Below, piece after piece: positions 7,291-56,539 of a stretch of DNA of 64,000 nucleotides. The notes beneath the pieces are model-generated. The model was not told the origin of the DNA, searched no databases, and saw nothing but the letters and a program-made list of their open reading frames with translations. The translations under genes were made by a program, and so were the position numbers. The stretch comes from Saccoglossus kowalevskii (lineage: Eukaryota > Hemichordata > Enteropneusta > Harrimaniidae), in NCBI RefSeq assembly GCF_000003605.2, contig NW_003154432.1:1-64000 (forward strand), given 5' to 3'. Numbering within the stretch: the first letter of the stretch is position 1; each line of letters begins with the position of its first letter.

Positions 7291-8159
7291 ATTCCAAATA
7301 AACTTATCCTTTACAAAGTCACATTGATCTGAATACCACATGACATCCAGTACTGTTCTTACAGCATTCCCAATAAACCTATTCTTTACAAAGATACATT
7401 GATTGGAATACCACATGACATCCAGTACTGTTCTTACAGTATCCTCAATAAACCTGACCTTTGCAAAGGCACATAGATTGGAATACCACATGACATCCAG
7501 TACTGTTCTTACAGTATCCCCAATAAACCTATCCGTTACAAAGGCACATTGATTTGAATACCACACGACACGCACAACTGTACTTACAGCATTCCCAATA
7601 AACCTAACCTTTACAAAGATACATTGATTGGAATACCACATGACATGCAGTACTGTTCTTACAGTATCCCCAATAACCCTGACCTTTGCAAAGGCACATT
7701 GATTGGAATACCACATGACATCCAGTACTGTTCTTACAGTATCCCCAATAAACCTATCCTTTACAAAGGCACATTGATTTGAATACCACATGGCATCCAT
7801 TACTGTTCTTACAGTATTCCCAATAAACCTAACCTTTACAAAGGCATATTGATTTGAATAGCACATGACACCCACAACTGTACTTATAGCATTCCCAATA
7901 AACCTATCCTTTACAAAGACACATTGATTTGAATATCACATGACATCCAATACTGTTCTTACAGCATTCCCAATAAACCTATCCTTTACAAAGGCACATT
8001 GATTGGAATACCACATGACATCCAGTACTGTTCTTACAGCATTCCCAATAAACCTATCCTTTACAAAGGTACATTGATTTGAATACCACATGACATCCAG
8101 TGCTGTTCTTATAGCATTCTCAATAAACCTATCCTTTACAAAGGCACATTGATCTGAAT

Positions 8160-9440
8160 ATCACATGACATCCATTACTGTTCTTACAGCATTCCCAATA
8201 AACCTATACTTTACAAAGGCACATTCATTGGAATACAACATGACATCCAGTACTGTTCTTACAGTATCCCCAATAAACCTATCCTTTACAAAGGCACATT
8301 GATTTGAATACCACACGACACGCACCACTGTTCTTACAGCATCCCCAATAAACCTAACCTTTACAAAGCTACATTGATTGGAATACCACATGACATCCAG
8401 TCCTATTCTTACAGTATCCCCTATAAACCTATTCTTTACAAAGGCACATTGATTGGAATACCACATGACATCCCATACTGTTCTTACAGCATCCCCAATA
8501 AACCTATCTTTTACAAAGGCACATTGATTGGAATACCACATGACATCTAGTACTGTTCTTACAGCATCCCCAATAAACCTATCCTTTACAAAGGCACATT
8601 GATTGGAATTCCACATGACATCTAGTACTGTTCATACAGCATCCCCAATAAACCTATCCTTTACAAAGGCACATTGATTTGAATACCACATGACATCCAG
8701 TACTGTTCTTACAGCATTCCCAATAAACCTATCCTTTACAAAGGCACATTGATTTGAATACTACATGACATCTAGTACTGTTCTTACAGCATCCCCAATA
8801 AACCTATCCTTTACAATGGCACATTGATTGGAATACCACATGACATCCAGTACTGTTCTTATATCATCCCCAATAAACTTATCCTTTACAAAGACACATT
8901 GATTGGAATATCACATGACATCCAATACTGTTCTTACAGCATTCCCAATAAACCTATCTTTTACAAAGGCACATTGATTTGAATACCACATGACATCCAG
9001 TACTGTTCTTACAGCATCCCCAATAAACTTATCCTTTACAAAGGCACATTGATTGGAATACCACATGACATCCAGTACTGTTCTTACAGTATCCCCAATA
9101 AACCTATCCTTTATAAAGGCACATTGATTTGAGTACCACATGACATCTATTACTGTTTTTACAGCATCCCCAATAAACCTATCCTTTACAAAGGCACATT
9201 GATTGGAATACCACATGACATCCGGTACTGTTCTTACAGTATCCCCAATAAACCTATCCTTTACAAAGGCACATTGATTGGAATACCACATGACATCCAG
9301 TACTGTTCTTACAGTATCCCCAATAAACCTATCCTTTACAAAGGCACAATGATTTGAATACCACATGACATCTAGTACTGTTCTTACAGTATCCCCAATA
9401 AACCTATCCTTTACAAAGGCACATTGATTAGAATTACCAC
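8160..9440. repeat. Dispersed block, copies also at 43,552-44,832 and (partly) 45,730-46,934
   Basis: Landmarks at 8,161, 8,911 and 9,447 correspond to 43,553, 44,303 and 44,839, all at an offset of 35,392. The block contains the 'cagtcctattc' variant, the 'tatcatccccaataaactt' variant and a terminal 76-bp monomer ('attagaattacc'). A third copy (45,730-46,941) has one monomer fewer between the two halves. Part of the block recurs at 34,018-34,559. 'cagtcctattc' itself occurs at 8,398, 24,142, 35,236, 37,939, 43,790 and 45,967. Confidence 0.82.
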
Positions 9441-10408
9441 ATGACATCCAGTACTGTACTTACAGCATCCCCAATAAACCTATCCTTTACAAAGGCACGT
9501 TGATTTGAATACCGCATGGCATCCAGTACTGTTCTTACAGTATTCCCAATAAACCTAACCTTTACAAAGGCATATTGATTTGAATACCACATGACATCCA
9601 GTACTGTTCTTACAGCATTCCCAATAAACCTATCCTTTACAAAGGTACATTGATTTGAATACCACATGACATCCAGTACTGTTCTTATAGCATTCTCAAT
9701 AAACCTATCCTTTACAAAGGCACATTGATCTGAATACCACATGACATCCAGTACTGTTCTTACAGTATCCCCAATAAACCTATCCTTTTCAAAGGCACAT
9801 TGATTTGAATACCACACGACACGCACCACTGTTTTTACAGCATCCCCAATAAACCTAACCTTTACAAAGATGCATTGATTGGAATACCACATGACATCCA
9901 GTCCTGTTCTTACAGTATCCCCAATAAACCTATCCTTTACAAAGGCACATTGATTGGAATACCACATGACATCCCGTACTGTTCTTACAGCATCTCCAAT
10001 AAACCTATCCTTTACAAAGGCACATTGATTGGAATACCACGTGACATCTAGTACTGTTCTTACAGCATCCCCAATAAACCTATCCTTTACAAAGACACAT
10101 TGATTGGAATACCACATGACATCTAGTACTGTTCATACAGCATCCCCAATAAACCTATCCTTTACAAAGGCACATTGATTTGAATACCACATGACATCCA
10201 GTACTGTTCTAACAGCATTCCCAATAAACCTATCCTTTACAAAGGCACATTGATTTGAATACCACATGACATCTAGTACTGTTCTTACAGCATCCCCAAT
10301 AAACCTATCCTTTACAAAGGCACATTGATTGGAATACCACATGACATCCAGTACTGTTCTTATATCATCCCCAATAAACCTATCCTTTACAAAGACACAT
10401 TGATTGGA

Positions 10409-19285: not shown

Positions 19286-20769
19286 TCCCCAATAAACCTA
19301 TCCTTTACAAAGACACATTGATTGGAATACCACATGACATCTAGTACTGTTCATACAGCATCCCCAATAAACCTATCCTTTACAAAGGCACATTGATTTG
19401 AATACCACATGACATCCAGTACTGTTCTTACAGCATTCCCAATAAACCTATCCTTTACAAAGGCACATTGATTTGAATACCACATGACATCTAGTACTGT
19501 TCTTACAGCATCCCCAATAAACCTATCCTTTACAAAGGCACATTGATTGGAATACCACATGACATCCAGTACTGTTCTTATATCATCCCCAATAAACCTA
19601 TCCTTTACAAAGACACATTGATTGGAATATCACATGACATCCAATACTGTTCTTACAGCATTCCCAATAAACCTATCTTTTACAAAGGCACATTGATTTG
19701 AATACCACATGACACCCAGTACTGTTCTTACAGCATCCCCAATAAACCTATCCTTTACAAATGCACATTGATTGGAATACCACATGTCATCCAGTACTGT
19801 TCTTACAGTATCCCCAATAAACCTATTCTTTACAAAGGCACATTGCTTTGAATACCACATGACATCCAGTACTGTTCTTACAGTATTCCCAATAAACCTA
19901 ACCTTTAAAAAGGCATATTGATTTGAATAGCACATGACACCCACAACTGTACTTACAGCATTTCCAATAAACCTATCCTTTACAAAGACACATTGATTTG
20001 AATATCACATGACATCCAGTACTGTTCTTACAGCATTCCCAATAAACCTATCCTTTACAAAGGCACATTGATTGGAATACCACATGACATCCAGTATTGT
20101 TCTTACAGTATCCCCAATAAACCTATCCTTTACAAAGGCACATTGATTTGAATACCACATGACATCTAGTACTGTTCTTACAGCATCCGCAATAAACCTA
20201 TCCTTTACAAAGGCACATTGATTGGAATTACCACATGACATCCAGTACTGTACTTACAGCATCCCCAATAAACCTATCCTTTACAAAGGCACGTTGATTT
20301 GAATACCACATGGCATCCAGTACTGTTCTTACAGTATTCCCAATAAACCTAACCTTTACAAAGGCATATTGATTTGAATAGCACATGACACCCACAACTG
20401 TACTTATAGCATTCCCAATAAACCTATCCTTTACAAAGACACATTGATTTGAATATCACATGACATCCAGTACTGTTCTTACAGCATTCCCAATAAACCT
20501 ATCCTTTACAAAGGCACATTGATTTGAATACCACATGACATCCAGTACTGTTCTTACAGTATTCCCAATAAACCTATCCTTTACAAAGGCACATTGATTT
20601 GAATATCACATGACATCCAGTACTGTTCTTACAACATTCCAAATAAACCTATCCTTTACAAAGATACATTGATTGGAATATCACATGACATCCAGTACTG
20701 TACTTACAGCATTCCAAATAAACCTATCCTTTACAAAGATACATTGATTGGAATACCACATGACATCCA

Positions 20770-21990
20770 GTACTGTTCTTACAGTGTTCCCAATAAACCT
20801 AACCTTTACAAAGTCACATTGATCTGAATACCACATGACATCCAGAACTGTTCTTACAGCATTCCCAATAAACCTAACCTTTACAAAGCCACATTGATCT
20901 GAATACCACATGACATCCAGTACAGTACTTACAGCATTCCCAATAAACCTAACCTTTACAAAGCCACATTGATCTGAATACCACATGACATCCAGTACTG
21001 TACTTACAGCATTCCCAATAAACCTAACCTTTACAAAGGCACATTGATTTGAATATAACATGACATCCAGTACTGTTCTTACAGCATTCCCAATAAACCT
21101 AACCTTTACAAGGGCACATTGATCTGAATACCACATGACATCCAGTACTGTACTTACAGCATTCCCAATAAACCTAACCTTTACAAAGCCACATTGATCT
21201 GAATACCACATGACATCCTGTACTGTTCTTACAGCATTTCCAATAAACATAACCTTTACAAAGCCACATTGATCTGAATACCACATGACATCCAGTATTG
21301 TACTTACAGCATTCCCAATAAACCTAACCTTTACAAAGCCACAATGATCTGAATACCACATGACATCCAGTGCTGTACTTACTGCATTCCCAATAAACCT
21401 AATCTTTACAAAGCCACATTGGTTGGAATACCACATGTCATCCAGTACTGTTCTTATAGCATTCCCAATAAACCTAACCTTTACAAAGGCACATTGATTG
21501 GAATACCACAAGACATCCAGTACTGTTCTTATAGCATTCCCAATAAACCTAACCTTTACAAAGCCACATTGATCTGAATATCACATGACATCCAGTACTG
21601 TACTTACAGCATTCCCAATAAACCCAACCTTTACAAAGGCACATTGATTGGAATACCACATGACATCCAGTACTGTTCTTACAGCATTCCCAATAAACCT
21701 AACCTTTACAAAGGCACATTGATTTGAATACCACATGACATCCAGTACTGCTCGTATAGCATTCTCAATAAACCTAACCTTTACAAAACCACATTGATTG
21801 GAATACCACATGACATCCAGTACTGTTCTTACAGCATTCCCAATAAACCTAACCTTTACAAAACCACATTGATTGGAATACCACATGACATCTAGTACTG
21901 TTCTTACAGCATTCCCAATAAACCTAACCATTACAAAGACACATTGATTGGAATACCACATGACATCCAGTACTGTACTTACAGCATCCC
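20770..21990. repeat. Satellite domain A2, a 1.2-kb family A island inside family B
   Basis: About 16 monomers have family A signatures ('gatctgaatacc', 'aaagccac', 'cctaacc') and are bracketed on both sides by family B. Its left part resembles A-domain blocks rich in 'gatctg'. The stretch 21,220-21,590 follows the same variant order as 51,205-51,590 and about 5,480-5,860. The stretch 21,597-21,960 is almost identical to 3,601-3,965 and 60,963-61,325, sharing the rare 'aataaaccca' and 'gctcgtatagc' variants. The island therefore looks like a transplanted piece of an A domain. The right edge is near 21,990, where 'catccccaataaacc' and an odd 'gattttattatcac' monomer appear. Confidence 0.85.
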
Positions 21991-24740
21991 CAATAAACCT
22001 AACCTTTACAAAGGCACATTGATTTTATTATCACATGACACCCACAAATGTTCTTACAGCATCCCCAATAAACCTATCCTTTACAAAGGCACATTGATAG
22101 GAATTCCACATGACATCTAGTACTGTTCTTACAGCATCCCCAATAAACCTATCCTTTACAAAGGCACATTGATTGGAATACCACATGACATCCAGTACTG
22201 TTCATACAGCATCCCCAATAAACCTATCCTTTACAATGCCACATTGATTTGAATACCACATGACATCCAGTACTGTTCTTACAGTATCCCCAATAAACCT
22301 ATCCTTTACAAAGGCACATTGATTTGAATACCACATGACATCTAGTACTGTTCTTACAGCATCCCTAATAAACCTACCCATAACAAAGGCACATTGATTT
22401 GAATACCACACGACACGCACAACTGTACTTACAGCATTCCAAATAAACCTAACCTTTACAAAGATACATTGATTGGAATACCACATGACTTCCAGTACTG
22501 TTCTTACAGTATCCCCAATAAACCTGACCTTTGCAATAGCACATTGATTGGGATACCACATGACATCCAGTACTGTTATTACAGTATCCCCAATAAACCT
22601 ATCCTTTACAAAGGCACATTGATTTGAATACCACATGACATGTATAACTGTTCTTACGCATCCCCAATAAACCTATTCTTTACAAAGGCACATTGATTTT
22701 AATATCACATGACATCCCGTACTGTTCTTATATCATCCCCAATAAACATATCCTTTACAAAGACACATTGATTGGAATATCACATGACATCCAATACAGT
22801 TCTTACAGCATTCCCAATAAACCTATCTTTTACAAAGGCACATTGATTTGAATACCACATGACATCCAGTACTGTTCTTACAGCATCCCCAATAAACCTA
22901 TCCTTTACAAAGGCACATTGATTGGAATACCACATGACATCCAGTACTGTTCTTACAGTATCCCTAATAAACCTATCCTTTACAAAGGCACATTGATTTG
23001 AATACCACATGACATCCAGTACTGTTCTTACAGTATTCCCAATAAACCTATCCTTTACAAAGGCACATTGATTGGAATACCACATGACATCCAGTACTGT
23101 TCTTACAGTATCCCCAATAAACCTATCCTTTACAAAGGCACATTGATTTGAATACCACACGACACGCACAACTGTACTTACAGCATTCCCAATAAACCTA
23201 ACCTTTACAAAGGCACATTGATTGGAATACCACATGACATCCAGTACTGTTCTTACAGTATCCCCAATAAACCTATCCTTTACAAAGGCACATTGATTTG
23301 AATACCACACGACACGCACAACTGTACTTACAGCATTCCCAATAAACCTAACCTTTACAAAGATACATTGATTGGAATACCACATGACATCCAGTACTGT
23401 TCTTACAGTATTCCCAATAAACCTGACCTTTGCAAAGGCACATTGATTGGAATACCACATGACATCCAGTACTCTTCTTACAGAATCCCCAATAAACCTA
23501 TCCTTTACAAAGGCACATTGATTTGAATGCCACATGGCATCCAGTACTGTTCTTACAGTATTCCCAATAAACCTAACCTTTACAAAGGCATATTGATTTG
23601 AATAGCACATGACACCCACAACTGTACTTATAGCATTCCCAATAAACCTATCCTTTACAAAGATACATTGATTTGAATATCACATGACATCCAGTACTGT
23701 TCTTACAGCATTCCCAATAAGCCTATCCTTTACAAAGGCACATTGATTGGAATACCACATGACATCCAGTACTGTTCTTACAGCATTCCCAATAAACCTA
23801 TCCTTTACAAAGGTACATTGATTTGAATACCACATGACATCCAGTACTGTTCTTATAGCATTCTCAATAAACCTATCCATTACAAAGGCACATTGATCTG
23901 AATATCACATGACATCCAGTACTGTTCTTACAGCATTCCCAATAAACCTATACTTTACAATGGCACATTGATTGGAATACAACATGACATCCAGTACTGT
24001 TCTTACAGTATCCCCAATAAACCTATCCTTTACAAAGGCACATTGATTTGAATACCACACGACACGCACCACTGTTCTTACAGCATCCCCAATAAACCTA
24101 ACCTTTACAAAGCTACATTGATTGGAATACCACATGACATCCAGTCCTATTCTTACAGTATCCCCAATAAACCTATCCTTTACAAAGGCACATTGATTGG
24201 AATACCACATGACATCCCATACTGTTCTTACAGCATCCCCAATAAACCTATCTTTTACAAAGGCACATTGATTGGAATACCACATGACATCTAGTACTGT
24301 TCTTACAGCATCCCCAATAAACCTATCCTTTACAAAGGCACATTGATTGGAATACCACATGACATCTAGTACTGTTCATACAGCATCCCCAATAAACCTA
24401 TCCTTTACAAAGGCACATTGATTTGAATACCACATGACATCCAGTACTGTTCGTACAGCACTCCCAATAAACCTATCCTTTACAAAGGCACATTGATTTG
24501 AATACCACATGACATCTAGTACTGTTCTTACATCATCCCCAATAAACCTATCCCTTACAATGGCACATTGATTGGAATACCATATGACATCCAGTACTGT
24601 TCTTATATCATCCCCAATAAACTTATCCTTTACAAAGACACATTGATTGGAATATCACATGACATCCAATACTGTTCTTACAGCATTCCCAATAAACCTA
24701 TCTTTTACAAAGGCACATTGATTTGAATACCACATGACAT
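21990..24740. repeat. Satellite domain B2 (family B monomers)
   Basis: Family B monomers with several 'cacacgacacgcac' variants. It includes a block around 22.3-23.0 kb that shares a 1-base deletion ('tcttacgcatcc') with blocks at 16.6 and 30.5 kb. It also includes a block around 23.9-24.4 kb that carries the rare 'cagtcctattc' variant, found at six places in the window. Confidence 0.85.
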
Positions 24741-25820
24741 CCAGTACTGTTCTTACAGCATCCCCAATAAACCTATCCTTTACAAAGGCACATTGATTTG
24801 AATATCACATGACACCCAGTACTGTTCTTACAGTATTCCCAATAAACCTAACCTTTACAAATGCACATTGATTTGAATACCACATGACATCCAGTACTGT
24901 TCTTACAGCATTCCCAATAAACCTAACCTTTACAAAGACACATTGATTGGAATACCACATGACATCCAGTATTGTTCTAACAGCATTGCCAATAAAACTA
25001 ACCATTACAAAACCACATTGATTGGAATATCACATGACATCCAGTACTGTTCTTACAGCATTCCCAATAAACCTAACTTTTACAAAGGCACATTGATTGG
25101 AATACCACATGACATCCAGTACTGTTCTTACAGCATTCCCAATAAACATAACTTTTACAAAGCCACATTGATCTGAATAATACATGACATCCAGTACTGT
25201 TCTTACAGCATTCCCAATAAACCTATCCTTTACAAAGTCACATTGATTTGAATACCACATGACATCCAGTGGTGTACTTACAGCATTCCCAATAAACCTA
25301 TCCTTTACAAAGCCACATTGATCTGAATACCACATGACATCCAGTACTGTTCTTACAGCATTCCCAATAAACCTAACCTTTACAAAGGCACATTGATTTG
25401 AATACCACATGACATCCAGTACTGTTCTTACAGCATTCCCAATAAACCTAACCTTTACAAAGTCACATTGATCTGAATACCACAAGACATCCAGAACTGT
25501 TCTTACAGCATTCCCAATAAACCTAACCTTTACAAAGCCACATTGATCTGAATACCACATGACATCCAGTACAGTACTTACAGCATTCCCAATAAACCTA
25601 ACCTTTACAAAGCCACATTGATCTGAATACCACATGACATCCAGTACTGTACTTACAGCATTCCCAATAAACCTAACCTTTACAAAGGCACATTGATTAG
25701 AATATAACATGACATCCAGTACTGTTCTTACAGCATTCCCAATAAACCTAACCTTTACAAAGACACATTGATTGGAATACCACATGACATCCAGTACTGT
25801 TCTTATAGCATCCCCAATAA
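24740..25820. repeat. Satellite domain A3, a chimeric family A island
   Basis: Reading base by base, 24,731-25,270 matches 53,298-53,837 with no difference seen (constant offset 28,567). From 25,271 to about 25,818 the sequence instead matches 50,623-51,170 (offset 25,352), including the rare 'ccagtggtgtact', 'cacaagacatccagaactg' and 'gattagaatataac' variants. The two source segments lie in the opposite order in the large A domain. The island ends in a truncated monomer ('aataaactatcacgtcac'). Confidence 0.85.
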
Positions 25821-25840
25821 ACTATCACGTCACATTGATT
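25800..25840. repeat. Truncated monomer at the A3/B3 junction
   Basis: Here 'aataaactatcacgtcacattg' replaces the usual run through 'cctatcctttacaaaggcac'. The unit is short by about 8 bases. It lies exactly where the family A island stops and family B begins. Confidence 0.85.
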
Positions 25841-28800
25841 GGAATATCACATGACATCCAGTACTGTTCTTACAGCATTCCCAATAAACCTATCTTTTAC
25901 AAAGGCACATTGATTTGAATACCACATGACATCCAGTACTGTTCTTACAGCATCCCCAATAAACCTATCCTTTACAAAGGCACATTGATTGGAATACCAC
26001 ATGACATCCAGTACTGTTCTTACAGTATCCCCAATAAACCTATCCTTTATAAAGGCACATTGATTTGAATACCACATGACATCTATTACTGTTTTTACAG
26101 CATCCCCAATAAACCTATCCTTTACAAAGGCACATTGATTGGAATACCACATGACATCCGGTTATGTTCTTACAGTATCCCCAATAAACCTATCCTTTAC
26201 AAAGGCACATTGATTGGAATACCACATGACATCCAGTACTGTTCTTACAGTATCCCCAATAAACCTATCCTTTACAAAGGCACATTGATTTGAATACCAC
26301 ATGACATCTAGTACTGTTCTTACAGCATCTGCAATAAACCTATCCTTTACAAAGGCACATTTATTAGAATTACCACATGACATCCAGTACTGTACTTACA
26401 GCATCCCCAATAAACCTATCCTTTACAAAGGCACATTGATTTGAATACCACCTGGCATCCAGTACTGTTCTTACAGTATTCCCAATAAACCTAACCTTTA
26501 CAAAGGCATATTGATTTGAATAGCACATGACACCCACAACTGTACTTATAGCATTCCCAATAAACCTATCCTTTACAAAGACACATTGATTTGAATATCA
26601 CATGACATCCAGTACTGTTCTTACAGCATTCCCAATAAACCTAACCTTTACAAAGATACATTGATTGGAATACCACATGACATCCAGTACTGTTCTTACA
26701 GTATTCCCAATAAACCTGACCTTTGCAAAGGCACATTGATTGGAATACCACATGACATCCAGTACTCTTCTTACAGTATCCCCAATAATCCTATCCTTTA
26801 CAAAGGCACATTGATTTGAATACCACATGGCATCCAGTACTGTTCTTACAGTATTCCCAATAAACCTAACCTTTACAAAGGCATATTGATTTGAATAGCA
26901 CATGACACCCACAACTGTACTTATAGCATTCCCAATAAACCTATCCTTTACAAAGACACATTGATTTGAATATCACATGACATCCAGTACTGTTCTTACA
27001 GCATTCCCAATAAGCCTATCCTTTACAAAGGCACATTAATTGGAATACCACATGACATCCAGTACTGTTCTTACAGCATTCCCAATAAACCTATCCTTTA
27101 CAAAGGTACATTGATTTGAATACCACATGACATCCAGTACTGTTCTTATAGCATTCTCAATAAACCTATCCTTTACAAAGGCACATTGATCTGAATATCA
27201 CATGACATCCAGTACTGTTCTTACAGCATTCCCAATAAACCTATACTTTACAAAGGCACATTGATTGGAATACAACATGACATCCAGTACTGTTCTTACA
27301 GTATCCCCAATAAACCTATCCTTTACAAAGGCACATTGATTTGAATACCACACGACACGCACCTCTGTTCTTACAGCATCCCCAATAAACCTAACCTTTA
27401 CAAAGCTACATTGATTGGAATACCGCATGACATCCAGTACTGTTCTTACAGTATTCCCAATAAACCTAACCTTTACAAAGGCACATTGATTTGAATACCA
27501 CACGACACGCACAACTGTACTTATAGCATTCCCAATAAACCTAACCTTTACAAAGATACATTGATTGGAATACCACATGACATCCAGTACTGTTCTTACA
27601 GTATCCCCAATAAACCTGACCTTTGCAAAGGCACATTGATTGGAATACCACATGACATCTAGTACTGTTCTTACAGCATCCCCAATAAACCTATCCTTTA
27701 CAAAGGCACATTGATTGGAATACCACATGACATCTAGTACTGTCATACAGCATCCCCAATAAACCTATCCTTTACAAAGGCACATTGAATTGAATACCAC
27801 ATGACATCCAGTACTGTTCTTACAGCATTCCCAATAAACCTAACCTTTACAAAGGCACATTGATTAGAATACCACATGACATCTAGTACTGTTCTTACAG
27901 CATCTCCAATAAACCTATCCTTTACAATGGCACATTGATTGGAATACCACATGACATCCAGTACTGTTCTTATATCATCCCCAATAAACCTATCCTTTAC
28001 AAAGACACATTGATTGGAATATCACATGACATCCAATACTGTTCTTACAGCATTCCCAATAAAAATATCTTTTACAAAGGCACATTGATTTGAATACCAC
28101 ATGAAATCCTGTACTGTTCTTACAGCATCCCCAATAAACCTATCCTTTACAAAGGCACATTGATTGGAATACCACATGACATCCAGTACTGTTCTTACAG
28201 CATCCCCAATAAACCTATCCTTTATAAAGGCACATTGATTTGAATACCACATGACATCTATTACTGTTCTTACAGCATCCCCAATAAACCTATCCTTTAC
28301 AAAGGCACATTGATTGGAATACCACATGACATCCAGTACTGTTCTTACAGTATCCCCAATAAACCTATTCTTTACAACGGCACATTGATTGGAATACCAC
28401 ATGACATCCAGTACTGTTCTTACAGTATCCCCAATAAACCTATCCTTTACAAAGGCACATTGATTGGAATACCACATGACATCTAGTACTGTTCTTACAG
28501 CATCCGCAATAAACCTATCCTTTACAAAGGCACATTGATTTGAATACCACATGGCATCCAGTACTGTTCTTACAGTATTCCCACTAAACCTAACCTTTAC
28601 AAAGGCATATTGATTTGAATAGCACATGACACCCACAACTGTACTTATAGCATTCCCAATAAAGCTATCCTTTACAAAGACACATTGATTTGAATATCAC
28701 ATGACATCCAGTACTGTTCTTACAGCATTCCCAATAAACCTATCCTTTACAAAGGCACATTGATTGGAATACCACATGACATCCAGTACTGTTCTTACAG

Positions 28801-35987: not shown

Positions 35988-37800
35988 GGTTATGTTCTTA
36001 CAGTCTCCCCAATAAACCTATCCTTTACAAAGGCACATTGATTGGAATACCACATGACATCCAGTACTGTTCTTACAGTATCCCCAATAAACCTATCCTT
36101 TACAAAGGCACATTGATTTGAATACCACATGACATCTAGTACTGTTCTTACAGCATCTGCAATAAACCTATCCTTTACAAAGGCACATTTATTAGAATTA
36201 CCACATGACATCCAGTACTGTACTTACAGCATCCCCAATAAACCTATCCTTTACAAAGGCACATTGATTTGAATACCACCTGGCATCCAGTACTGTTCTT
36301 ACAGTATTCCCAATAAACCTAACCTTTACAAAGGCATATTGATTTGAATAGCACATGACACCCACAACTGTACTTATAGCATTCCCAATAAACCTATCCT
36401 TTACAAAGACACATTGATTTGAATATCACATGACATCCAGTACTGTTCTTACAGCATTCCCAATAAACCTAACCTTTACAAAGATACATTGATTGGAATA
36501 CCACATGACATCCAGTACTGTTCTTACAGTATCCCCAATAAACCTGACCTTTGCAAAGGCACATTGATTGGAATACCACATGACATCCAGTACTCTTCTT
36601 ACAGTATCCCCAATAATCCTATCCTTTACAAAGGCACATTGATTTGAATACCACATGGCATCCAGTACTGTTCTTACAGCATTCCCAATAAACCTATCCT
36701 TTACAAAGGCACATTGATTTGAATACCACATGACATCTAGTACTGTTTTTACAGCATCCCCAATAAACCTATCCTTTACAATGGCACATTGATTGGAATA
36801 CCACATGACATCCAGTACTGTTCTTATATCATCCCCAATAAACTTATCCTTTACAAAGACACATTGATTGGAATATCACATGACATCCAGTACTGTTCTT
36901 ACAGCATTCCCAATAAACCTATCTTTTACAAAGGCACATTGATTTGAATACCACATGACATCCAGTACTGTTCTTACAGCATCCCCAATAAACCTATCCT
37001 TTACAAAGGCACATTGATTGGAATACCACATGACATCCAGTACTGTTCTTACAGTATCCCCAATAAACCTATCCTTTATAAAGGCACATTGATTTGAATA
37101 CCACATGACATCTATTACTGTTTTTACAGCATCCCCAATAAACCTATCCTTTACAAAGGCACATTGATTGGAATACCACATGACATCCGGTTATGTTCTT
37201 ACAGTATCCCCAATAAACCTATCCTTTACAAAGGCACATTGATTGGAATACCACATGACATCCAGTACTGTTCTTACAGTATCCCCAATAAACCTATCCT
37301 TTACAAAGGCACATTGATTTGAATACCACATGACATCTAGTACTGTTCTTACAGCATCTGCAATAAACCTATCCTTTACAAAGGCACATTTATTAGAATT
37401 ACCACATGACATCCAGTACTGTACTTACAGCATCCCCAATAAACCTATCCTTTACAAAGGCACATTGATTTGAATACCACCTGGCATCCAGTACTGTTCT
37501 TACAGTATTCCCAATAAACCTAACCTTTACAAAGGCATATTGATTTGAATAGCACATGACACCCACAACTGTACTTATAGCATTCCCAATAAACCTATCC
37601 TTTACAAAGACACATTGATTTGAATATCACATGACATCCAGTACTGTTCTTACAGCATTCCCAATAAACCTAACCTTTACAAAGATACATTGATTGGAAT
37701 TCCACATGACATCCAGTACTGTTCTTACAGTATTCCCAATAAACCTGACCTTTGCAAAGGCACATTGATTGGAATACCACATGACATCCAGTACTGTTCT
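35988..37800. repeat. 16-monomer (1,201-bp) tandem higher-order step
   Basis: The rare junction 'ccggttatgttc' occurs at 35,987 and 37,188. The 76-bp variant 'attagaatta' occurs at 36,191 and 37,392. The 'gaatagcacatg' variant occurs at 36,346 and 37,547. All three pairs are 1,201 bp apart. The copies diverge after about 36,600 and 37,800. The same block occurs at 25,847-26,383, matching 36,876-37,412 at a constant offset of 11,029. Confidence 0.85.
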
Positions 37801-39737
37801 TACAGTATCCCCAATAAACCTATCCTTTACAAAGGCACATTGATTTGAATACCACACGACACGCACCACTGTTCTTACAGCATCCCCAATAAACCTAACC
37901 TTTACAAAGCTACATTGATTGGAATACCACATGACATCCAGTCCTATTCTTACAGTATCCCCAATAAATCTATTCTTTACAAAGGCACATTGATTGGAAT
38001 ACCACATGACATCCCATACTGTTCTTACAGCATCCCCAATAAACCTATCTTTTACAAAGGCACATTGATTGGAATATCACATGACATCCAGTACTGTTCT
38101 TACAGCATCCCCAATAAACCTATCCTTTACAAAGGCACATTGATTGGAATACCACATGACATCTAGTACTGTTCATACAGCATCCCCAATAAACCTATCC
38201 TTTACAAAGGCACATTGATTTGAATACCACATGACATCCAGTACTGTTCTTACAGCATTCCCAATAAACCTATCCTTTACAAAGGCACATTGATTAGAAT
38301 ACCACATGACATCTAGTACTGTTCTTACAGCATCCCCAATAAACCTATCCTTTACAATGGCACATAGATTGGAATACCACATGACATCCAGTACTGTTCT
38401 TATATCATCCCCAATAAACCTATCCTTTACAAAGACACATTGATTGGAATATCACATGACATCCAATACTGTTCTTACAGCATTCCCAATAAACCTATCT
38501 TTTACAAAGGCACATTGATTTGAATACCACATGAAATCCTGTACTGTTCTTACAGCATCCCCAATAAACCTATCCTTTACAAAGGCACATTGATTGGAAT
38601 ACCACATGACATCCAGTACTGTTCTTACAGCATCCCCAATAAACCTATCCTTTATAAAGGCACATTGATTTGAATACCACATGACATCTATTACTGTTTT
38701 TACAGTATTCCCAATAAACCTAACCTTTACAAAGGCACATTGATTTGAATACCACACGACACGCACAACTGTACTTACAGCATTCCCAATAAACCTAACC
38801 TTTACAAAGATACATTGATTGGAATACCACATGACATCCAGTACTGTTCTTACAGTATCCCCAATAAACCTGACCTTTGCAAAGGCACATAGATTGGAAT
38901 ACCACATGACATCCAGTACTGTTCTTACAGTATCCCCAATAAACCTATCCTTTACAAAGGCACATTGATTTCAATACCACACGACACGCACAACTGTACT
39001 TACAGCATTCCCAATAAACCTAACCTTTACAAAGATACATTGATTGGAATACCACATGACATCCAGTACTGTTCTTACAGTATCCCCAATAACCCTGACC
39101 TTTGCAAAGGCACATTGATTGGAATACCACATGACATCCAGTACTGTTCTTACAGTATCCCCAATAAACCTATCCTTTACAAAGGCACATTGATTTGAAT
39201 ACCACATGGCATCCAGTACTGTTCATACAGTATTCCCAATAAACCTAACCTTTACAAAGGCATATTGATTTGAATAGCACATGACACCCACAACTGTACT
39301 TATAGCATTCCCAATAAACCTATCCTTTACAAAGACACATTGATTTGAATATCACATGACATCCAATACTGTTCTTACAGCATTCCCAATAAACCTATCC
39401 TTTACAAAGGCACATTGATTGGAATACCACATGACATCCAGTACTGTTCTTACAGCATTCCCAATAAACCTATCCTTTACAAAGGTACATTGATTTGAAT
39501 ACCACATGACATCCAGTGCTGTTCTTATACCATTCTCAATAAACCTATCCTTTACAAAGGCACATTGATCTGAATATCACATGACATCCAGTACTGTTCT
39601 TACAGCATTCCCAATAAACCTATACTTTACAAAGGCACATTGATTGGAATACAACATGACATCCAGTACTGTTCTTACAGTATTCCCAATAAACCTAACC
39701 TTTACAAAGGCACATTGATTTGAATACCACACGACAC

Positions 39738-41640: not shown

Positions 41641-44600
41641 TAAACCTATCCTTTACAAAGGCACATTGATCTGAATATCACATGACATCCAGTACTGTTC
41701 TTACAGCATTCCCAATAAACCAATCCTTTACAAAGGCACATTGATTGGAATACCACATGACATCCAGTACTGTTCTTACAGTATCCCCAATAAACCTATC
41801 CTTTTCAAAGGCACATTGATTTGAATACCACACGACACGCACCACTGTTCTTACAGCATCCCCAATAAACCTAACCTTTACAAAGATACATTGATTGGAA
41901 TACCACATGACATCCAGTACTGTTCTTACAACATTCCCAATAAACCTATCCTTTACAAAGGCACATTGATTGGAATACCACATGACATCCCGTACTGTTC
42001 TTACAGCATCCCCAATAAACCTATCCTTTACAAAGGCACATTGATTGCAATACCACATGACATCTAGTACTGTTCTTACAGCATCCCCAATAAACCTATC
42101 CTTTACAAAGGCACATTGATTGGAATACCACATGACATCTAGTACTGTTCATACAGCATCCCCAAAAAACCTATCCTTTACAAAGGCACATTGATTTTAA
42201 TACCACATGACATCCAGTACTGTTCTTACAGCATTCCCAATAAACCTATCCTTTACAAAGGCACATTGATTTGAATACCACATGACATCTAGTACTGTTC
42301 TTAGAGCATCCCCAATAAACCTATCCTTTACAAAGGCACATTGATTGGAATACCACATGACATCCAGTACTGTTCTTATATCATCCCCAATAAACCTATC
42401 CTTTCCAGAGACACATTGATTGGAATATCACATGACATCCAATACTGTTCTTACAGCATTTCCAATAAACCTATCTTTTACAAAGGCACATTGATTTGAA
42501 TACCACATGACATCCAATACTGTTCTGACAGCATCCCCAATAAACCTATCCTTTACAAAGGCACATTGATTGGAATACCACATGACATCCAGTACTGTTC
42601 TTACAGTATCCCCAATAAACCTATCCTTTACAAAGGCACATTGATTTTAATACCACATGACATCCAGTTCTGTACTTACAGCATCCCCAATAAACCTATC
42701 CTTTAGAAAGGCACATTGATTTGAATACCACATGACATCCAGTACTGTTCTTACAGTATTCCCAACAAACCTAACCTTTACAAAGGCACATTGATTTGAA
42801 TACCACACGACACGCACAACTGTACTTACAGCATTCCCAATAAACCTAACCTTTACAAAGATACATTGATTGGAATACCACATGACATCCAGTACTGTTC
42901 TTACAGTATCCCCAATAAACCTGACATTTGCAAAGGCACATTGATTGGAATACCACATGACATCCAGTACTGTTCTTACAGTATCCCCAATAAACCTATC
43001 CTTTACAAAGGCACATTGATTTGAATACCACACGACACGCACAACTGTACTTACAGCATTCCCAATAAACCTAACCTTTACAAAGATACATTGATTGGAA
43101 TACCACATGACATCCAGTACTGTTCTTACAGTATCCCCAATAAACCTATCCTTTACAAAGGCACATTGATTTGAATACCACATGGCATCCAGTACTGTTC
43201 TTACAGTATTCCCAATAAACCTAACCTTTACAAAGGCATATTGATTTGAATAGCACATGACACCCACAACTGTACTTATAGCATTCCCAATAAACCTATC
43301 CTTTACAAAGACACATTGATTTGAATATCACATGACATCTAGTACTGTTCTTACAGCATTCCCAATAAGCCTATCCTTTACAAAGGCACATTGATTGGAA
43401 TACCACATGACATCCAGTACTGTTCTTACAGCATTCCCAATTAACCTATTCTTTACAAAGGTACATTGATTTGAATACCACATGACATCCAGTTCTGTTC
43501 TTATAGCATTCTCAATAAACCTATCCTTTACAAAGGCACATTGATCTGAATATCACATGACATCCAGTACTGTTCTTACAGCATTCCCAATAAACCTATG
43601 CTTTACAAAGGCACATTGATTGGAATACAACATGACATCCAGTACTGTTCTTACAGTATCCCCAATAAACCTATCCTTTACAAAGGCACATTGATTTGAA
43701 TACCACACGACACGCACCACTGTTCTTACAGCATCCCCAATAAACCTAACCTTTACAAAGCTACATTGATTGGAATACCACATGACATCCAGTCCTATTC
43801 TTACAGTATCCCCAATAAATCTATTCTTTACAAAGGCACATTGATTGGAATACCACATGACATCCCATACTGTTCTTACAGCATCCCCAATAAACCTATC
43901 TTTTACAAAGGCACATTGATTGGAATACCACATGACATCTAGTACTGTTCTTACAGCATCCCCAATAAACCTATCCTTTACAAAGGCACATTGATTGGAA
44001 TACCACATGACATCTAGTACTGTTCATACAGCATCCCCAATAAACCTATCCTTTACAAAGGCACATTGATTTGAATACCACATGACATCCAGTACTGTTC
44101 TTACAGCATTCCCAATAAACCTATCCTTTACAAAGGCACATTGATTTGAATACCACATGACATCTAGTACTGTTCTTACAGCATCCCCAATAAACCTATC
44201 CTTTACAATGGCACATTGATTGGAATACCACATGACATCCAGTACTGTTCTTATATCATCCCCAATAAACTTATCCTTTACAAAGACACATTGATTGGAA
44301 TATCACATGACATCCAATACTGTTCTTACAGCATTCCCAATAAACCTATCTTTTACAAAGGCACATTGATTTGAATACCACACGACATCCAGTACTGTTC
44401 TTACAGCATCCCCAATAAACCTATCCTTTACAAAGGCACATTGATTGGAATACCACATGACATCCAGTACTGTTCTTACAGTATCCCCAATAAACCTATC
44501 CTTTATAAAGGCACATTGATTTGAATACCACATGACATCTATTACTGTTTTTACAGCATCCCCAATAAACCTATCCTTTACAAAGGCACATTGATTGGAA

Positions 44601-47600
44601 TACCACATGACATCCGGTACTGTTCTTACAGTATCCCCAATAAACCTATCCTTTACAAAGGCACATTGATTGGAAAACCACATGACATCCAGTACTGTTC
44701 TTACAGTATCCCCAATAAACCTATCCTTTACAAAGGCACATTGATTTGAATACCACATGACATCTAGTACTGTTCTTACAGCATCTGCAATAAACCTATC
44801 CTTTACAAAGGCACATTGATTAGAATTACCACATGACATCCAGTACTGTACTTACAGCATCCCCAATAAACCTATCCTTTACAAAGGCACATTGATTTGA
44901 ATACCACCTGGCATCCAGTACTGTTCTTACAGTATTCCCAATAAACCTATCCTTTACAAAGGCACATTGATTTGAATACCACATGACATCTAGTACTGTT
45001 CTTACAGCATCTGCAATAAACCTATCCTTTACAAAGGCACATTGATTAGAATTACCACATGACATCCAGTACTGTACTTACAGCATTCCCAATAAACCTA
45101 TCCTTTACAAAGACACATTGATTTGAATATCACATGACATCCAGTACTGTTCTTACAGCATTCCCAATAAACCTAACCTTTACAAAGATACATTGATTGG
45201 AATACCACATGACATCCAGTACTGTTCTTACAGTATCCCCAATAAACCTGACCTTTGCAAAGACACATTGATTGGAATACCACATGACATCCAGTACTCT
45301 TCTTACAGTATCCCCAATAATCCTATCCTTTACAAAGGCACATTGATTTGAATACCACATGGCATCCAGTACTGTTCTTACAGTATTCCCAATAAACCTA
45401 ACCTTTACAAAGGCATATTGATTTGAATAGCACATGACACCCACAACTGTACTTATAGCATTCCCAATAAACCTATCCTTTACAAAGACACATTGATTTG
45501 AATATCACATGACATCCAGTACTGTTCTTACAGCATTCCCAATAAGCCTATCCTTTACAAAGGCACATTGATTGGAATACCACATGACATCCAGTACTGT
45601 TCTTACAGAATTCCCAATAAACCTATCCTTTACAAAGGTACATTGATTTGAATACCACATGACATCCAGTACTGTTCTTATAGCATTCTCAATAAACCTA
45701 TCCTTTACAAAGGCACATTGATCTGATTATCACATGACATCCAGTACTGTTCTTACAGCATTCCCAATAAACCTATACTTTACAAAGGCACATTGATTGG
45801 AATACAACATGACATCCAGTACTGTTCTTACAGTATCCCCAATAAACCTATCCTTTACAAAGGCACATTGATTTGAATACCACACGACACGCACCACTGT
45901 TCTTACAGCATCCCCAATAAACCTAACCTTTACAAAGCTACATTGATTGGAATACCACATGACATCCAGTCCTATTCTTACAGTATCCCCAATAAACCTA
46001 TTCTTTACAAAGGCACATTGATTGGAATACCACATGACATCCCATACTGTTCTTACAGCATCCCCAATAAACCTATCTTTTACAAAGGCACATTGATTGG
46101 AATACCACATGACATCTAGTACTGTTCATACAGCATCCCCAATAAACCTATCCTTTACAAAGGCACATTGATTTGAATACCACATGACATCCAGTACTGT
46201 TCTTACAGCATTCCCAATAAACCTATCCTTTACAAAGGCACATTGATTTGAATACTACATGACATCTAGTACTGTTCTTACAGCATCCCCAATAAACCTA
46301 TCCTTTACAATGGCACATTGATTGGAATACCACATGACATCCAGTACTGTTCTTATATCATCCCCAATAAACTTATCCTTTACAAAGACACATTGATTGG
46401 AATATCACATGACATCCAATACTGTTCTTACAGCATTCCCAATAAACCTATCTTTTACAAAGGCACATTGATTTGAATACCACATGACATCCAGTACTGT
46501 TCTTACAGCATCCCCAATTAACCTATCCTTTACAAAGGCACATTGATTGGAATACCACATGACATCCGGTACTGTTCTTACAGTATCCCCAATAAACCTA
46601 TCCTTTATAAAGGCACATTGATTTGAATACCACATGACATCTATTACTGTTTTTACAGCATCCCCAATAAACCTATCCTTTACAAAGGCACATTGATTGG
46701 AATACCACATGACATCCGGTACTGTTCTTACAGTATCCCCAATAAACCTATCCTTTACAAAGGCACATTGATTGGAATACCACATGACATCCAGTACTGT
46801 TCTTACAGTATCCCCAATAAACCTATCCTTTACAAAGGCACAATGATTTGAATACCACATGACATCTAGTACTGTTCTTACAGCATCTGCAATAAACCTA
46901 TCCTTTACAAAGGCACATTGATTAGAATTACCACATGACATCCAGTACTGTACTTACAGCATCCCCAATAAACATATCCTTTACAAAGGCACATTGATTT
47001 GAATACCACATGGCATCCAGTACTGTTCTTACAGTATTCCCAATAAACCTAACCTTTACAAAGGCATATTGATTTGAATAGCACATGACACCCACAACTG
47101 TACTTATAGCATTCCCAATAAACCTATCCTTTACAAAGACACATTGATTTGAATATCACATGACATCCAGTACTGTTCTTACAGCATTCCCAATAAACCT
47201 ATCCTTTAAAAAGGCACATTGATTGGAATACCACATGACATCCAGTACTGTTCTTACAGCATTCCCAATAAACCTATCCTTTACAAAGGTACATTGATTT
47301 GAATACCACATGACATCCAGTACTGTTCTTATAGCATTCTCAATAAACCTATCCTTTACAAAGGCACATTGATCTGAATATCACATGACATCCAGTACTG
47401 TTCTTACAGCATTCCCAATAAACCAATCCTTTACAAAGGCACATTGATTGGAATACCACATGACATCCAGTACTGTTCTTACAGTATCCCCAATAAACCT
47501 ATCCTTTTCAAAGGCACATTGATTTGAATACCACACGACACGCACCACTGTTCTTACAGCATCCCCAATAAACCTAACCTTTACAAAGATGCATTGATTG

Positions 47601-49856: not shown

Positions 49857-51200
49857 TCACATGACATCCAGTACTGTTCTTACAGCATTCCCAATAAACC
49901 TAACCTTTACAAAGCCACATTGATCTGAATACCACATGACATCCAGTACTGTACTTACAGCATTCCCAATAAACCTAACCTTTACAAAGTCACATTGATC
50001 TGAATACCACATGACTTCCAGAACTGTTCTTACAGCATTCCCAATAAACCTAACCTTTACAAAGCCACATTGATCTGAATACCACATGACATCCAGTACT
50101 GTACTTACAGCATTCCCAATAAACCTAACCTTTACAAAGCCACATTGATCTGAATACCACATGACATCCAGTAGTGTACTTACAGCATTCCCAATAAACC
50201 TAACCTTTACAAAGGCACATTGATTTGAATATAACATGACATCCAGTACTGTTCTTACAGCATTCCCAATAAACCTAACCTTTACAAAGCCACATTGATC
50301 TGAATACCACATGACATCCAGTACTGTACTTACAGCATTCCCAATAAACCTAACCTTTACAAAGCCACATTGATCTGAATACCACATGACATCCAGTACT
50401 GTTCTTACAGCATTTCCAATAAACCTAACCTTTACAAAGCCACATTGATCTGAATACCACATGACATCCAGTATTGTACTTACAGCATTCCTAATAAACC
50501 TAACCTTTACAAAGGCACATTGATTGGAATACCACATGACATCCAGTAATGTTCGTATAGCATTCCCAATAAACCTAACCTTTACAAAGCCACATTCATC
50601 TGAATACCACATGACATCCAGTGGTGTACTTACAGCATTCCCAATAAACCTATCCTTTACAAAGCCACATTGATCTGAATACCACATGACATCCAGTACT
50701 GTTCTTACAGCATTCCCAATAAACCTAACCTTTACAAAGGCACATTGATTTGAATACCACATGACATCCAGTACTGTTCTTACAGCATTCCCAATAAACC
50801 TAACCTTTACAAAGTCACATTGATCTGAATACCACAAGACATCCAGAACTGTTCTTACAGCATTCCCAATAAACCTAACCTTTACAAAGCCACATTGATC
50901 TGAATACCACATGACATCCAGTACAGTACTTACAGCATTCCCAATAAACCTAACCTTTACAAAGCCACATTGATCTGAATACCACATGACATCCAGTACT
51001 GTACTTACAGCATTCCCAATAAACCTAACCTTTACAAAGGCACATTGATTAGAATATAACATGACATCCAGTACTGTTCTTACAGCATTCCCAATAAACC
51101 TAACCTTTACAAAGACACATTGATTGGAATACCACATGACATCCAGTACTGTTCTTATAGCATCCCCAATAAACCTATCAGCACATTGACTTGATACCAC
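49857..51200 (-). other. Longest satellite-derived open frame (447 codons); not considered a gene
   Basis: On the minus strand each 75-bp monomer translates to a 25-residue unit beginning MWYSNQC or MWYSDQC, followed by a VRF-IGNAV core and a TVLDV end. This run has 18 such units in a row without a stop. The upstream end (the + strand right end) begins inside the truncated monomer near 51,180, and the frame closes at a CATGTGA variant of the CATGTGG box. No unique N- or C-terminal sequence, signal peptide or recognisable domain is seen. Units differ by non-synonymous as well as silent changes. I treat this as a chance open frame set by the 3n period. Other long ones lie at 31,643-32,902 and 17,780-18,964. 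Confidence 0.8.
51160..51200. repeat. Truncated monomer inside A4
   Basis: The run 'aacctatcagcacattgac' is short by about 9-10 bases, and 'cttgatacc' lacks a further base. The lesion is at the same place in the monomer as the one at 25,820, and the 550 bp before it match the 550 bp before 25,820. The two are therefore probably related lesions, although the sequence after them differs. Confidence 0.85.
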
Positions 51201-53740
51201 ATGACATCCAGTACTGTTCTTACAGCATTTCCAATAAACCTAACCTTTACAAAGCCACATTGATCTGAATACCACATGACATCCAGTATTGTACTTACAG
51301 CATTCCCAATAAACCTAACCTTTACAAAGCCACATTGATCTGAATACCACATGACATCCAGTACTCTACTTACTGCATTCCCAATAAACCTAATCTTTAC
51401 AAAGCCACATTAGTTGGAATACCACATGTCATCCAGTACTGTTCTTATAGCATTCCCAATAAACCTAACCTTTACAAAGGCACATTGATTGGAATACCAC
51501 AAGACATCCAGTACTGTTCTTATAGCATTCCCAATAAACCTAACCTTTACAAAGCCACATTGATCTGAATATCACATGACATCCAGTACTGTACTTACAG
51601 CATTCCCAATAAACCTAACCTTTACAAAACCACATTGATTGGAATACCACATGACATCCAGTACTGTTCTTACAGCATTCCCAATAAACCTAACCTTTAC
51701 AAAGGCACATTGATTTGAATACCACATGACATCCAGTACTGCTCTTATAGCATTCTCAATAAACCTAACCTTTACAAAACCACATTGATTGGAATACCAC
51801 ATGACATCCAGTACTGTTCTTACAGCATTCCCAATAAACCTAACCATTACAAAGACACATTGATTGGAATACCACATGACATCCAGTACTGTTCTTACAG
51901 CATTGCCAATAAAACTAACCATTACAAAACCACATTGATTGGAATATCACATGACATCCAGTACTGTACTTACAGCATTCCAAATAAACCTAACATTTAC
52001 AAAGGCACATTGATTGGAATACCACATGACATCTAGTACTGTTCTTACAGCATTCCCAATAAACCTAACCATTACAAAGACACATTGATTGGAATACCAC
52101 ATGACATCCAGTACTGTTCTTATAACATTCCCAATAAACCTATCCTTTACAAAGTCACATTGATTTGAATATCACATGACATCCAGTACTGTTCTTACAG
52201 CATTCCCAATAAACCTATCTTTTACAAAGGCACATTGATTGGAATACCACAAGACATCCAGTACTGTTCTTGTAGCATTCCCAATAAACCAAACCTTTGC
52301 AAAGCCACATTGATCTGAATATCACATGACATCCAGTACTGTTCTTACAGCATTCCCAATAAACCTATCCTTTACAAAGTCACATTGATTTGAATACCAC
52401 ATGACATCCAGTACTGTTCTTATAACATTCCCAATAAACCTAACCTTTACAAAGTCACATTGATTTGAATATCACATGACATCCAGTACTGTTCTTACAG
52501 CATCCCCAATAAATCTATCCTTTACAAAGCCACATTGATCTGAATACCACATGACATCCAGTACTGTTCTTACAGCATTCCCAATAAACCTAACCTTTAC
52601 AAAGGCACATTGATTTGAATACCACATGACATCCAGTACTGTTCTTACAGCATTCCCAATAAACCTAACCTTTACAAAGTCACATTGATCTGAATACCAC
52701 ATGACATCCAGAACTGTTCTGACAGCATTCCCAATAAACCTAACCTTTACAAAGCCACATTGATCTGAATACCACATGACATCCAGTACTGTACTTACAG
52801 CATTCCCAATAAACCTAACCTTTACAAAGCCACATTGATCTGAATACCACATGACATCCAGTACTGTACTTACAGCATTCCCAATAAACCTAACCTTTAC
52901 AAAGCCACATTGATCTGAATACCACATGACAACCAGTATTGTTCTTACAGAATTCTCAATAAACCTAACCTTTACAAAGGCACATTGATTTGAATATCAC
53001 ATGACATCCAGTACTGTTCTTACAGCATTCCCAATAAACCTAACCTTTACAAAGCCACATTGATCTGAATACCACATGACATCCAGTACTGTACTTACAG
53101 CATTCCCAATAAACCTAACCTTTACAAAGTCACATTGTTCTGAATATCACATGACATCCAGTACTGTTCTTACAGCATTCCCAATAAACCTATCCTTTAC
53201 AAAGTCACATTGATTTGAATACCACATGACATCCAGTACTGTTCTTATAACATTCCCAATAAACCTAACCTTTACAAAGTCACATTGATTTGAATATCAC
53301 ATGACATCCAGTACTGTTCTTACAGCATCCCCAATAAACCTATCCTTTACAAAGGCACATTGATTTGAATATCACATGACACCCAGTACTGTTCTTACAG
53401 TATTCCCAATAAACCTAACCTTTACAAATGCACATTGATTTGAATACCACATGACATCCAGTACTGTTCTTACAGCATTCCCAATAAACCTAACCTTTAC
53501 AAAGACACATTGATTGGAATACCACATGACATCCAGTATTGTTCTAACAGCATTGCCAATAAAACTAACCATTACAAAACCACATTGATTGGAATATCAC
53601 ATGACATCCAGTACTGTTCTTACAGCATTCCCAATAAACCTAACTTTTACAAAGGCACATTGATTGGAATACCACATGACATCCAGTACTGTTCTTACAG
53701 CATTCCCAATAAACATAACTTTTACAAAGCCACATTGATC

Positions 53741-55050
53741 TGAATAATACATGACATCCAGTACTGTTCTTACAGCATTCCCAATAAACCTATCCTTTAC
53801 AAAGTCACATTGATTTGAATACCACATGACATCCAGTACTGTTCTTATAACATTCCCAATAAACCTAACCTTTACAAAGTCACATTGATTTGAAAAGCAC
53901 ATGACATCCAGTACTGTTCTTACAGCATCCCCAATAAATCTATCCTTTACAAAGCCACATTGATCTGAATACCACATGACATCCAGTACTGTTCTTACAG
54001 CATTCCCAATAAACCTAACCTTTACAAAGGCACATTGATTTGAATACCACATGACATCCAGTACTGTTCTTACAGCATTCCCAATAAACCTAACCTTTAC
54101 AAAGTCACATTGATCTGAATACCACATGACATCCAGAACTGTTCTTACAGCATTCCCAATAAACCTAACCTTTACAAAGCCACATTGATCTGAATACGAT
54201 ATGACATCCAGTACTGTACTTACAGCATTCCCAATAAACCTAACCTTTACAAAGCCACATTGATCTGAATACCACATGACATCCAGTACTGTACTTACAG
54301 CATTCCCAATAAACCTAACCTTTACAAAGCCACATTGATCTGAATACCACATGACAACCAGTAATGTTCTTACAGCATTCCCAATAAACATAACTTTTAC
54401 AAAGCCACATTGATCTGAATAATACATGACATCCAGTACTGTTCTTACAGCATTCCCAATAAACCTATCCTTTACAAAGTCACATTGATTTGAATACCAC
54501 ATGACATCCAGTACTGTTCTTATAACATTCCCAATAAACCTAACCTTTACAAAGTCACATTGATTTGAATATCACATGACATCCAGTACTGTTCTTACAG
54601 CATCCCCAATAAATCTATCCTTTACAAAGCCACATTGATCTGAATACCACATGACATCCAGTACTGTTCTTACAGCATTCCCAATAAACCTAACCTTTAC
54701 AAAGGCACATTGATTTGAATACCACATGACATCCAGTACTGTTCTTACAGCATTCCCAATAAACCTAACCTTTACAAAGTCACATTGATCTGAATACCAC
54801 ATGACATCCAGAACTGTTCTTACAGCATTCCCAATAAACCTAACCTTTACAAAGCCACATTGATCTGAATACCATATGACATCCAGTACTGTACTTACAG
54901 CATTCCCAATAAACCTAACCTTTACAAAGCCACATTGATCTGAATACCACATGACATCCAGTACTGTACTTACAGCATTCCCAATAAACCTAACCTTTAC
55001 AAAGCCACATTGATCTGAATACCACATGACAACCAGTAATGTTCTCACAG
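53741..55050. repeat. 9-monomer (675-bp) tandem higher-order step
   Basis: Bases 53,741-54,375 match 54,416-55,050 at an offset of 675 (9 x 75), with about three differences seen, two of them adjacent ('gaaaagcac' against 'gaatatcac'). Both start with the rare 'tgaataatacatg' monomer and contain 'acaaccagtaatg'. Related copies without 'aataatac' start at about 52,316 and 4,478. Confidence 0.85.
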
Positions 55051-56530: not shown

Positions 56531-56539
56531 CCGTACTGT

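What the first reader, a model, noticed from the sequence alone, without database searches (positions are those of the whole stretch)
24731..25820. Small A island is a chimera of two A4 segments joined in reversed order
Bases 24,731-25,270 match 53,298-53,837 and 25,271-25,818 match 50,623-51,170, with no differences seen by eye. In the A4 domain the second segment lies 2.7 kb before the first. A circle (or tandem duplication) of about 3.2 kb spanning roughly 50,621-53,837 would create exactly the 53,837|50,621 join seen in the island. The join falls inside sequence both partners share ('gaataccacatgacatccagt' region), so it is in register. This fits insertion or conversion from an extrachromosomal satellite circle, or duplication followed by deletion. 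The direction of copying cannot be told from the sequence.
Basis: partly seen in the sequence, partly recalled or inferred. Interest (0 to 1): 0.7.

Follow-up and report, generated by a model that had tools for sequence, protein, structure and literature searches.

The report
Patchwork repeat copied within satellite DNA
A 1.1-kb patch inside a long run of a 75-base repeat is a recent, error-free copy of two pieces of another part of the same run, pasted in swapped order, which is a clear but ordinary example of how such repeat arrays reshuffle.

Summary
The window is one 75-bp satellite array. Bases 24,731-25,270 equal 53,298-53,837 (540 of 540) and 25,249-25,822 equal 50,601-51,174 (574 of 574), sharing 22 bp at the join. 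Nowhere else in the window has this order.

New here: the island is an insertion into B-type array. Leaving out 24,731-25,922, the flanks align without a gap to an uninterrupted B copy at 7,476-9,586 (37 differences in 2,111 bp). B sequence is repeated on both sides (92-160 bp). So direction can be inferred: A4-like source into B. The left junction lies in 68 bp shared by A4 and B; the right one is a scar in a 67-bp monomer, and the donor tract stops at a 65-bp monomer at the same place.

Reversed order is not special: 18 of 36 comparable block pairs run backward. The 22-bp join is no longer than chance. A circle is possible but nothing favours it. Best reading: break-repair synthesis with template switching, a published model for satellite arrays. 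No reads were available and the genome search did not complete, so assembly error is unlikely but not excluded.

The parts
24731..25270 (+). island piece 1, copy of 53,298-53,837
   Evidence: 540 of 540 identical; next best place 26 differences
25249..25822 (+). island piece 2, copy of 50,601-51,174
   Evidence: 574 of 574 identical
25249..25270 (+). 22-bp join shared by both donors, in register
   Evidence: run length at or above 22 in 42% of random in-phase A4 pairs
24731..24798 (+). left junction: 68 bp identical in A4 donor and in B copies, so the switch lies somewhere in it
   Evidence: 4 of 158 in-phase A4 places share 68 or more with B copies at 34,098 and 36,951 (2 of 158 with the copy at 44,378)
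25823..25830 (+). right junction scar inside a 67-bp monomer (25,799-25,865)
24639..24798 (+). left copy of the B sequence that flanks the island on both sides
   Evidence: 159 of 160 identical to 25,831-25,990, only difference at 24,669
25831..25990 (+). right copy of that B sequence
25831..26671 (+). right flank, exact 841-bp match to 36,860-37,700; possible third donor of the same event
   Evidence: chain 24,584-26,671 has 1 mismatch
53298..53837 (+). donor 1 in the A4 domain
50601..51174 (+). donor 2 in the A4 domain
51151..51215 (+). 65-bp truncated A4 monomer where donor 2 stops matching
   Evidence: shortest of 853 complete monomers; the island's 67-bp one is next
7476..9586 (+). uninterrupted B copy (empty site)
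   Evidence: joined flanks align over 2,111 bp, 37 differences, no gap
43088..45956 (+). second uninterrupted B copy (empty site)
   Evidence: joined flanks: 2,757 matches, 36 differences, one 76-bp gap away from the junction

Best explanation
The island is a young insertion of about 1.1 kb of A-type satellite into a B-type stretch of the same array, made by homology-guided repair synthesis. A broken B end paired with A4-type sequence in the 68-bp shared stretch, copied about 540 bp, re-started about 3.2 kb further back on A4 sequence through a 22-bp in-register match, copied about 574 bp up to a defective monomer, and was then joined to B sequence with a small scar and a 92-160 bp repeat of B. 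Shown: the two exact matches, the order, the join, the empty sites, the repeated flank, the scar. Inferred: the break, the direction of synthesis, and that the backward step happened during the copying rather than in the source beforehand.
For: Exact matches and join. Empty sites: joined flanks align to two B copies with 37 differences in 2,111 bp without a gap, and with 36 differences and one 76-bp gap away from the junction. Of the 12 best left-flank and 12 best right-flank diagonals, 6 pair up, and each of the 6 gives the same 92-bp overlap. Left junction favoured by homology: 68-bp runs in 0.3% of random in-phase B-A4 pairs. The join has only chance-level homology and the right end has a scar, as expected of template switching plus end joining. 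The source-end scar and the island scar lie in the two shortest of 853 complete monomers. Both island blocks have 0 mismatches, the only one of 66 adjacent long-block pairs to do so, so they are of one age. Published model: out-of-register re-initiation behind the fork gives duplications in satellite arrays (PMC8997354, PMC11034957, passages read).
Against: The same sequence would result if the A4 source already carried the backward order (tandem duplication in a sister, a homologue or an earlier state). The two B flank copies differ at 24,669 and the right one carries the allele of the 36.9-kb copy, so they are not a simple duplication of one target. Unguided alignment of the whole region to four B copies put the long gap elsewhere, with 50-159 differences, so the empty-site result rests on the diagonal search and the joined-flank alignments. 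The flank repeat alone is not outstanding in this background (score 149; next best 131 at another offset). No reads or second assembly.
Confidence: 0.45

Rival explanations
1. Unequal exchange first, copying second: an A4 version on a sister, a homologue or at an earlier time carried a 3.2-kb tandem duplication with the 53,837|50,601 join (or an A array outside the window has this order), and one contiguous 1.09-kb tract was copied from it into B.
For: One continuous tract with 0 differences in 1,092 bp; join in register. A4 holds other recent in-register repeats at 675, 2,100, 2,250 and 2,400 bp, so duplications of this size happen there. Unequal out-of-register exchange is the classical model (PMC8997354 passages).
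Against: No such duplicated order is present in the window. The join shows no enrichment of homology over chance, weakly against a long-homology crossover.
Confidence: 0.3
2. Circle: a 3.2-kb extrachromosomal circle of A4 satellite was formed at the 22-bp join and a part of it was captured at a break in B.
For: Gives the join directly. Satellite circles of 0.5-8 kb in multiples of the monomer are common in plants (PMC2543021, passages). A circle opened at the defective A4 monomer would explain why the right edge falls there.
Against: Only about one third of the circle is present, so a second assumption is needed; circle formation in that paper depends strongly on similarity, whereas the two partners here differ at 33 of 350 bases around the 22-bp match. 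No part of 51,194-53,297 shows up as an exact long block elsewhere in the mosaic (its best block, 52,166-53,137 with 4,329-5,300, has 4 differences).
Confidence: 0.12
3. Assembly or library artefact: the island is a chimera made by the assembler or by amplification.
For: The joins lie in repeats, all parts exist elsewhere in the window, and no reads could be examined.
Against: A join through only 22 shared bases and a right edge with 8 bases found in neither parent are not what overlap assembly makes (general knowledge). Both flanks are 1-2% different from their nearest empty-site copies, so the island sits in its own distinct context.
Confidence: 0.1

Closest known systems
Break-induced replication / template-switching model of satellite array evolution (Talbert and Henikoff 2022, PMC8997354; Showman et al. 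2024, PMC11034957)
   Same: Out-of-register re-start behind the starting point, mosaic of nearby templates, net gain of sequence; both papers describe this for centromeric arrays (passages seen).
   Different: Here it is inferred from one footprint in an unnamed organism with a 75-bp repeat; no proteins, breaks or time course.
Unequal crossing over in tandem arrays (Smith 1976, cited in PMC11034957; paper itself not read)
   Same: In-register exchange at multiples of the monomer.
   Different: Does not by itself give the scarred right edge or an A piece inside B.
Satellite-derived eccDNA (PMC2543021, passages)
   Same: Circle size would be about 3.2 kb, within the reported 0.5-8 kb range.
   Different: No circle seen; only a third of it would have been captured.
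Small tandem duplications at breaks with long overhangs (PMC8355091, abstract only)
   Same: Short direct repeat of target sequence on both sides of a repaired break.
   Different: The two repeats differ at one base and one carries another copy's allele.

Membership tests
Satellite DNA array | Long head-to-tail array of one monomer | tested here: met
   TRF: period 75, 853.5 copies, 90% matches, 4-64,000
Non-allelic copy (conversion/BIR-type) tract | Near-identical donor elsewhere, with an uninterrupted target sequence | tested here: met
   0 of 1,092 differences to the donors; empty-site copies at 7,476-9,586 and 43,088-45,956
Template switching | Joins between separate templates at short homologies, not in a single contiguous source | tested here: inconclusive
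   22-bp join at chance level; a contiguous source outside the window cannot be excluded because the genome search did not complete
eccDNA re-insertion | Circular junction molecule exists | not testable with these tools
   needs circle-enriched or long reads
eccDNA re-insertion | Inserted sequence is the circle, permuted | tested here: not met
   only 1.09 of about 3.2 kb is present, so at best a fragment
Target-site duplication by staggered break | Identical repeats of the target on both sides | tested here: inconclusive
   159 of 160 identical, but the differing base at 25,861 matches the copy at 36,860

The most novel reading that the evidence does not exclude
One repair event wrote the whole stretch from about 24.73 to 26.67 kb by visiting three templates in turn (53.3 kb, 50.6 kb, 36.9 kb), and the matching defective monomers at 25,799-25,865 and 51,151-51,215 are linked scars of that event. 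The chain 24,584-26,671 has a single mismatch in 2,088 bp, the longest such stretch in the window (next 1,586), against 595 mismatches in 64,000 on the whole path. This would be a natural three-template footprint in satellite DNA with both ends readable.
Probability: 0.25. Interest if true: 0.45.

Novelty: new member of a known kind. Interest (0 to 1): 0.27.

Why it matters
It is a satellite exchange whose donors, order, junctions and empty target can all be read, because the two array types (A and B) act as markers and the copy is still error-free. Such dated footprints let one separate crossover, circle and template-switching models of array evolution once the rest of the array and other haplotypes are available.

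Tried and rejected
Rejected: that reversed order is itself evidence for a circle. Among 66 adjacent pairs of mosaic blocks of 200 bp or more, 36 have donors within 10 kb, and 18 of these run backward (the island pair included). Rejected: that the join needed special homology; 42% of random in-phase A4 pairs share 22 bp or more at a random column. Rejected: that A4 or another A domain in the window holds the island order.

Led nowhere: search for the motif in viral contigs and in genome contigs, 0 stretches each; four short strings of the repeat in the paper library, 0 papers; phrases such as '75-bp satellite', 6 papers in the listing, titles on mouse and ibis DNA, none followed up; Rfam on 24,000-26,500, 0 matches; paper searches for satellite circles re-inserting, 1 listed and 1, neither read; a last search for mosaic satellite conversion, 30 papers hold the terms, 12 listed, none read. 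A preferred step of 16 monomers was looked for and not seen: offset 16 ranks 19th of the 25 listed. The other small A domain (20.6-22.0 kb) shows no flank repeat as good as the island's (best score 122 against 149), so I cannot say that the two arose alike. Unguided global alignments placed the insertion gap at other positions because the repeat lets the aligner slide; I used them only as a warning.

Full report
What the window is. Tandem Repeats Finder sees a single array of period 75 over 4-64,000 (853.5 copies, 90% matches). My own phase fit gives 853 complete monomers, 806 of the 855 pieces exactly 75 bp long. The organism is not known: the motif is in 0 stretches of the viral and prokaryote collections searched, and four strings of it are in 0 papers of the library. 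The own-genome search did not complete (7 tries).

The observation. 24,731-25,270 equals 53,298-53,837 (540 of 540) and 25,249-25,822 equals 50,601-51,174 (574 of 574). They overlap by 22 bp, in the same monomer phase in both donors. These are the 4th and 2nd longest of 315 exact repeat pairs of at least 150 bp. Next-best places differ at 26 of 540 and 23 of 574 bases. A Viterbi copy-mosaic that was told nothing of the finding puts its borders at 24,731, 25,249 and 25,822.

How special is it? Exact long copies are common in this array: the mosaic has 209 blocks, 595 mismatches in 64,000 bases, and nine blocks of 250 bp or more without a mismatch (these include the island's two blocks and one of them seen from the donor side). 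Of 66 adjacent pairs of blocks of 200 bp or more, 36 have donors within 10 kb of each other; 18 run forward and 18 backward, the island pair being one of the 18. So the reversed order is what a coin would give. What does stand out is that the island pair is the only one of the 66 with no mismatch in either block, which says the two pieces are of one young age.

Direction. The left flank ends, and the right flank begins, inside the same B copies. Of the 12 best left-flank and 12 best right-flank diagonals, 6 pair up (8,986/8,895; 44,378/44,287; 46,480/46,389; 34,098/34,007; 36,951/36,860; 28,097/28,006), and each of the 6 gives a 92-bp overlap. With the island and one copy of the overlap left out, the joined flanks align to 7,476-9,586 over 2,111 bp with 37 differences and no gap, and to 43,088-45,956 with 36 differences and one 76-bp gap away from the junction. 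Unguided alignment of the region with the island left in put the gap elsewhere, at the cost of 83-159 differences for the three longer comparisons and 50 for the shortest; in a 75-bp repeat the aligner can slide, so I rely on the diagonals. The copies are related to each other, so the six are not independent witnesses. Still, the simplest history is that B was uninterrupted and the A piece came in.

The edges. On the left, A4 matches from 24,731 on, and two B copies (34,098 and 36,951 diagonals) match on to 24,798, so the switch lies within 68 shared bases. Runs that long occur in 0.3% of random in-phase B-A4 pairs and at 4 of 158 in-phase A4 places for this target (2 of 158 if the 44,378 copy is taken). 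That end looks chosen by homology. The join inside the island has a 22-bp run, reached by 42% of random in-phase A4 pairs. On the right, 25,823-25,830 fits neither parent, in a 67-bp monomer. The donor stops matching in a 65-bp monomer at the same place. These are the two shortest of 853 complete monomers. Their deletions are alike but not the same, so either the copied tract reached the defect and ended there, or the defect changed again. I cannot tell which; the coincidence is the least explained part.

The B repeat. 24,639-24,798 and 25,831-25,990 agree at 159 of 160 bases. It would pass for a target duplication, but the one difference (24,669 / 25,861) is an allele that the right copy shares with 36,860, with which the right flank is identical for 841 bp. 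In this background such a repeat is not rare by itself: the next best between the same flanks scores 131 against 149. It may thus mark a switch to a third template at 36.9 kb. The whole chain 24,584-26,671 has one mismatch in 2,088 bp, the longest such stretch in the window; the second (1,586) is the 36.7-38.3 kb partner region. The 36.9-kb copy could also be the receiver; the sequence does not say.

How it most likely arose. Repair synthesis that began in homology, re-started backward once, and ended with a scar fits all edges. This is what the break-induced replication model of satellite arrays describes (re-starting behind the fork gives duplications; template switching can bring in sequence from elsewhere; passages of PMC8997354, and PMC11034957). 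Copying from an A4 version that already had the order is nearly as good. A circle is allowed, since satellite circles of this size exist (PMC2543021 passages), but it needs the extra assumption that a third of it was caught, and nothing in the window asks for it.

Verdict. The process is known; the example is unusually legible. The main limits are that no reads, second haplotype or rest of the array could be examined.

Noticed in passing
25,831-26,671 and 36,860-37,700: Longest exact repeat of the window (841 bp), beginning at the first base after the island's scar.
   Followed up: partly
36,006-36,499 and 37,207-37,700: Exact 494-bp repeat at a spacing of 1,201 bp (16 monomers plus 1), also equal to part of 26,178-26,704: a recent local duplication.
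   Followed up: no
39,734-41,543: Cluster of small insertions and deletions, with monomers of 91, 71, 70 and 69 bp: a worn stretch in the B domain.
   Followed up: no
24,453-24,583: Five differences (24,453, 24,461, 24,533, 24,554, 24,583) that set the left flank apart from each of the four B copies listed, just before the island: a possible small patch or mutation cluster.
   Followed up: no
20,600-22,000: A second small A domain inside B, itself a mosaic whose blocks match 25.4, 5.3 and 3.4 kb (the last two in backward order).
   Followed up: partly
56,525-60,702: A4 repeats itself at a spacing of 2,400 bp (56,533-56,903 with 58,933-59,303; 57,477-58,301 with 59,877-60,701).
   Followed up: no
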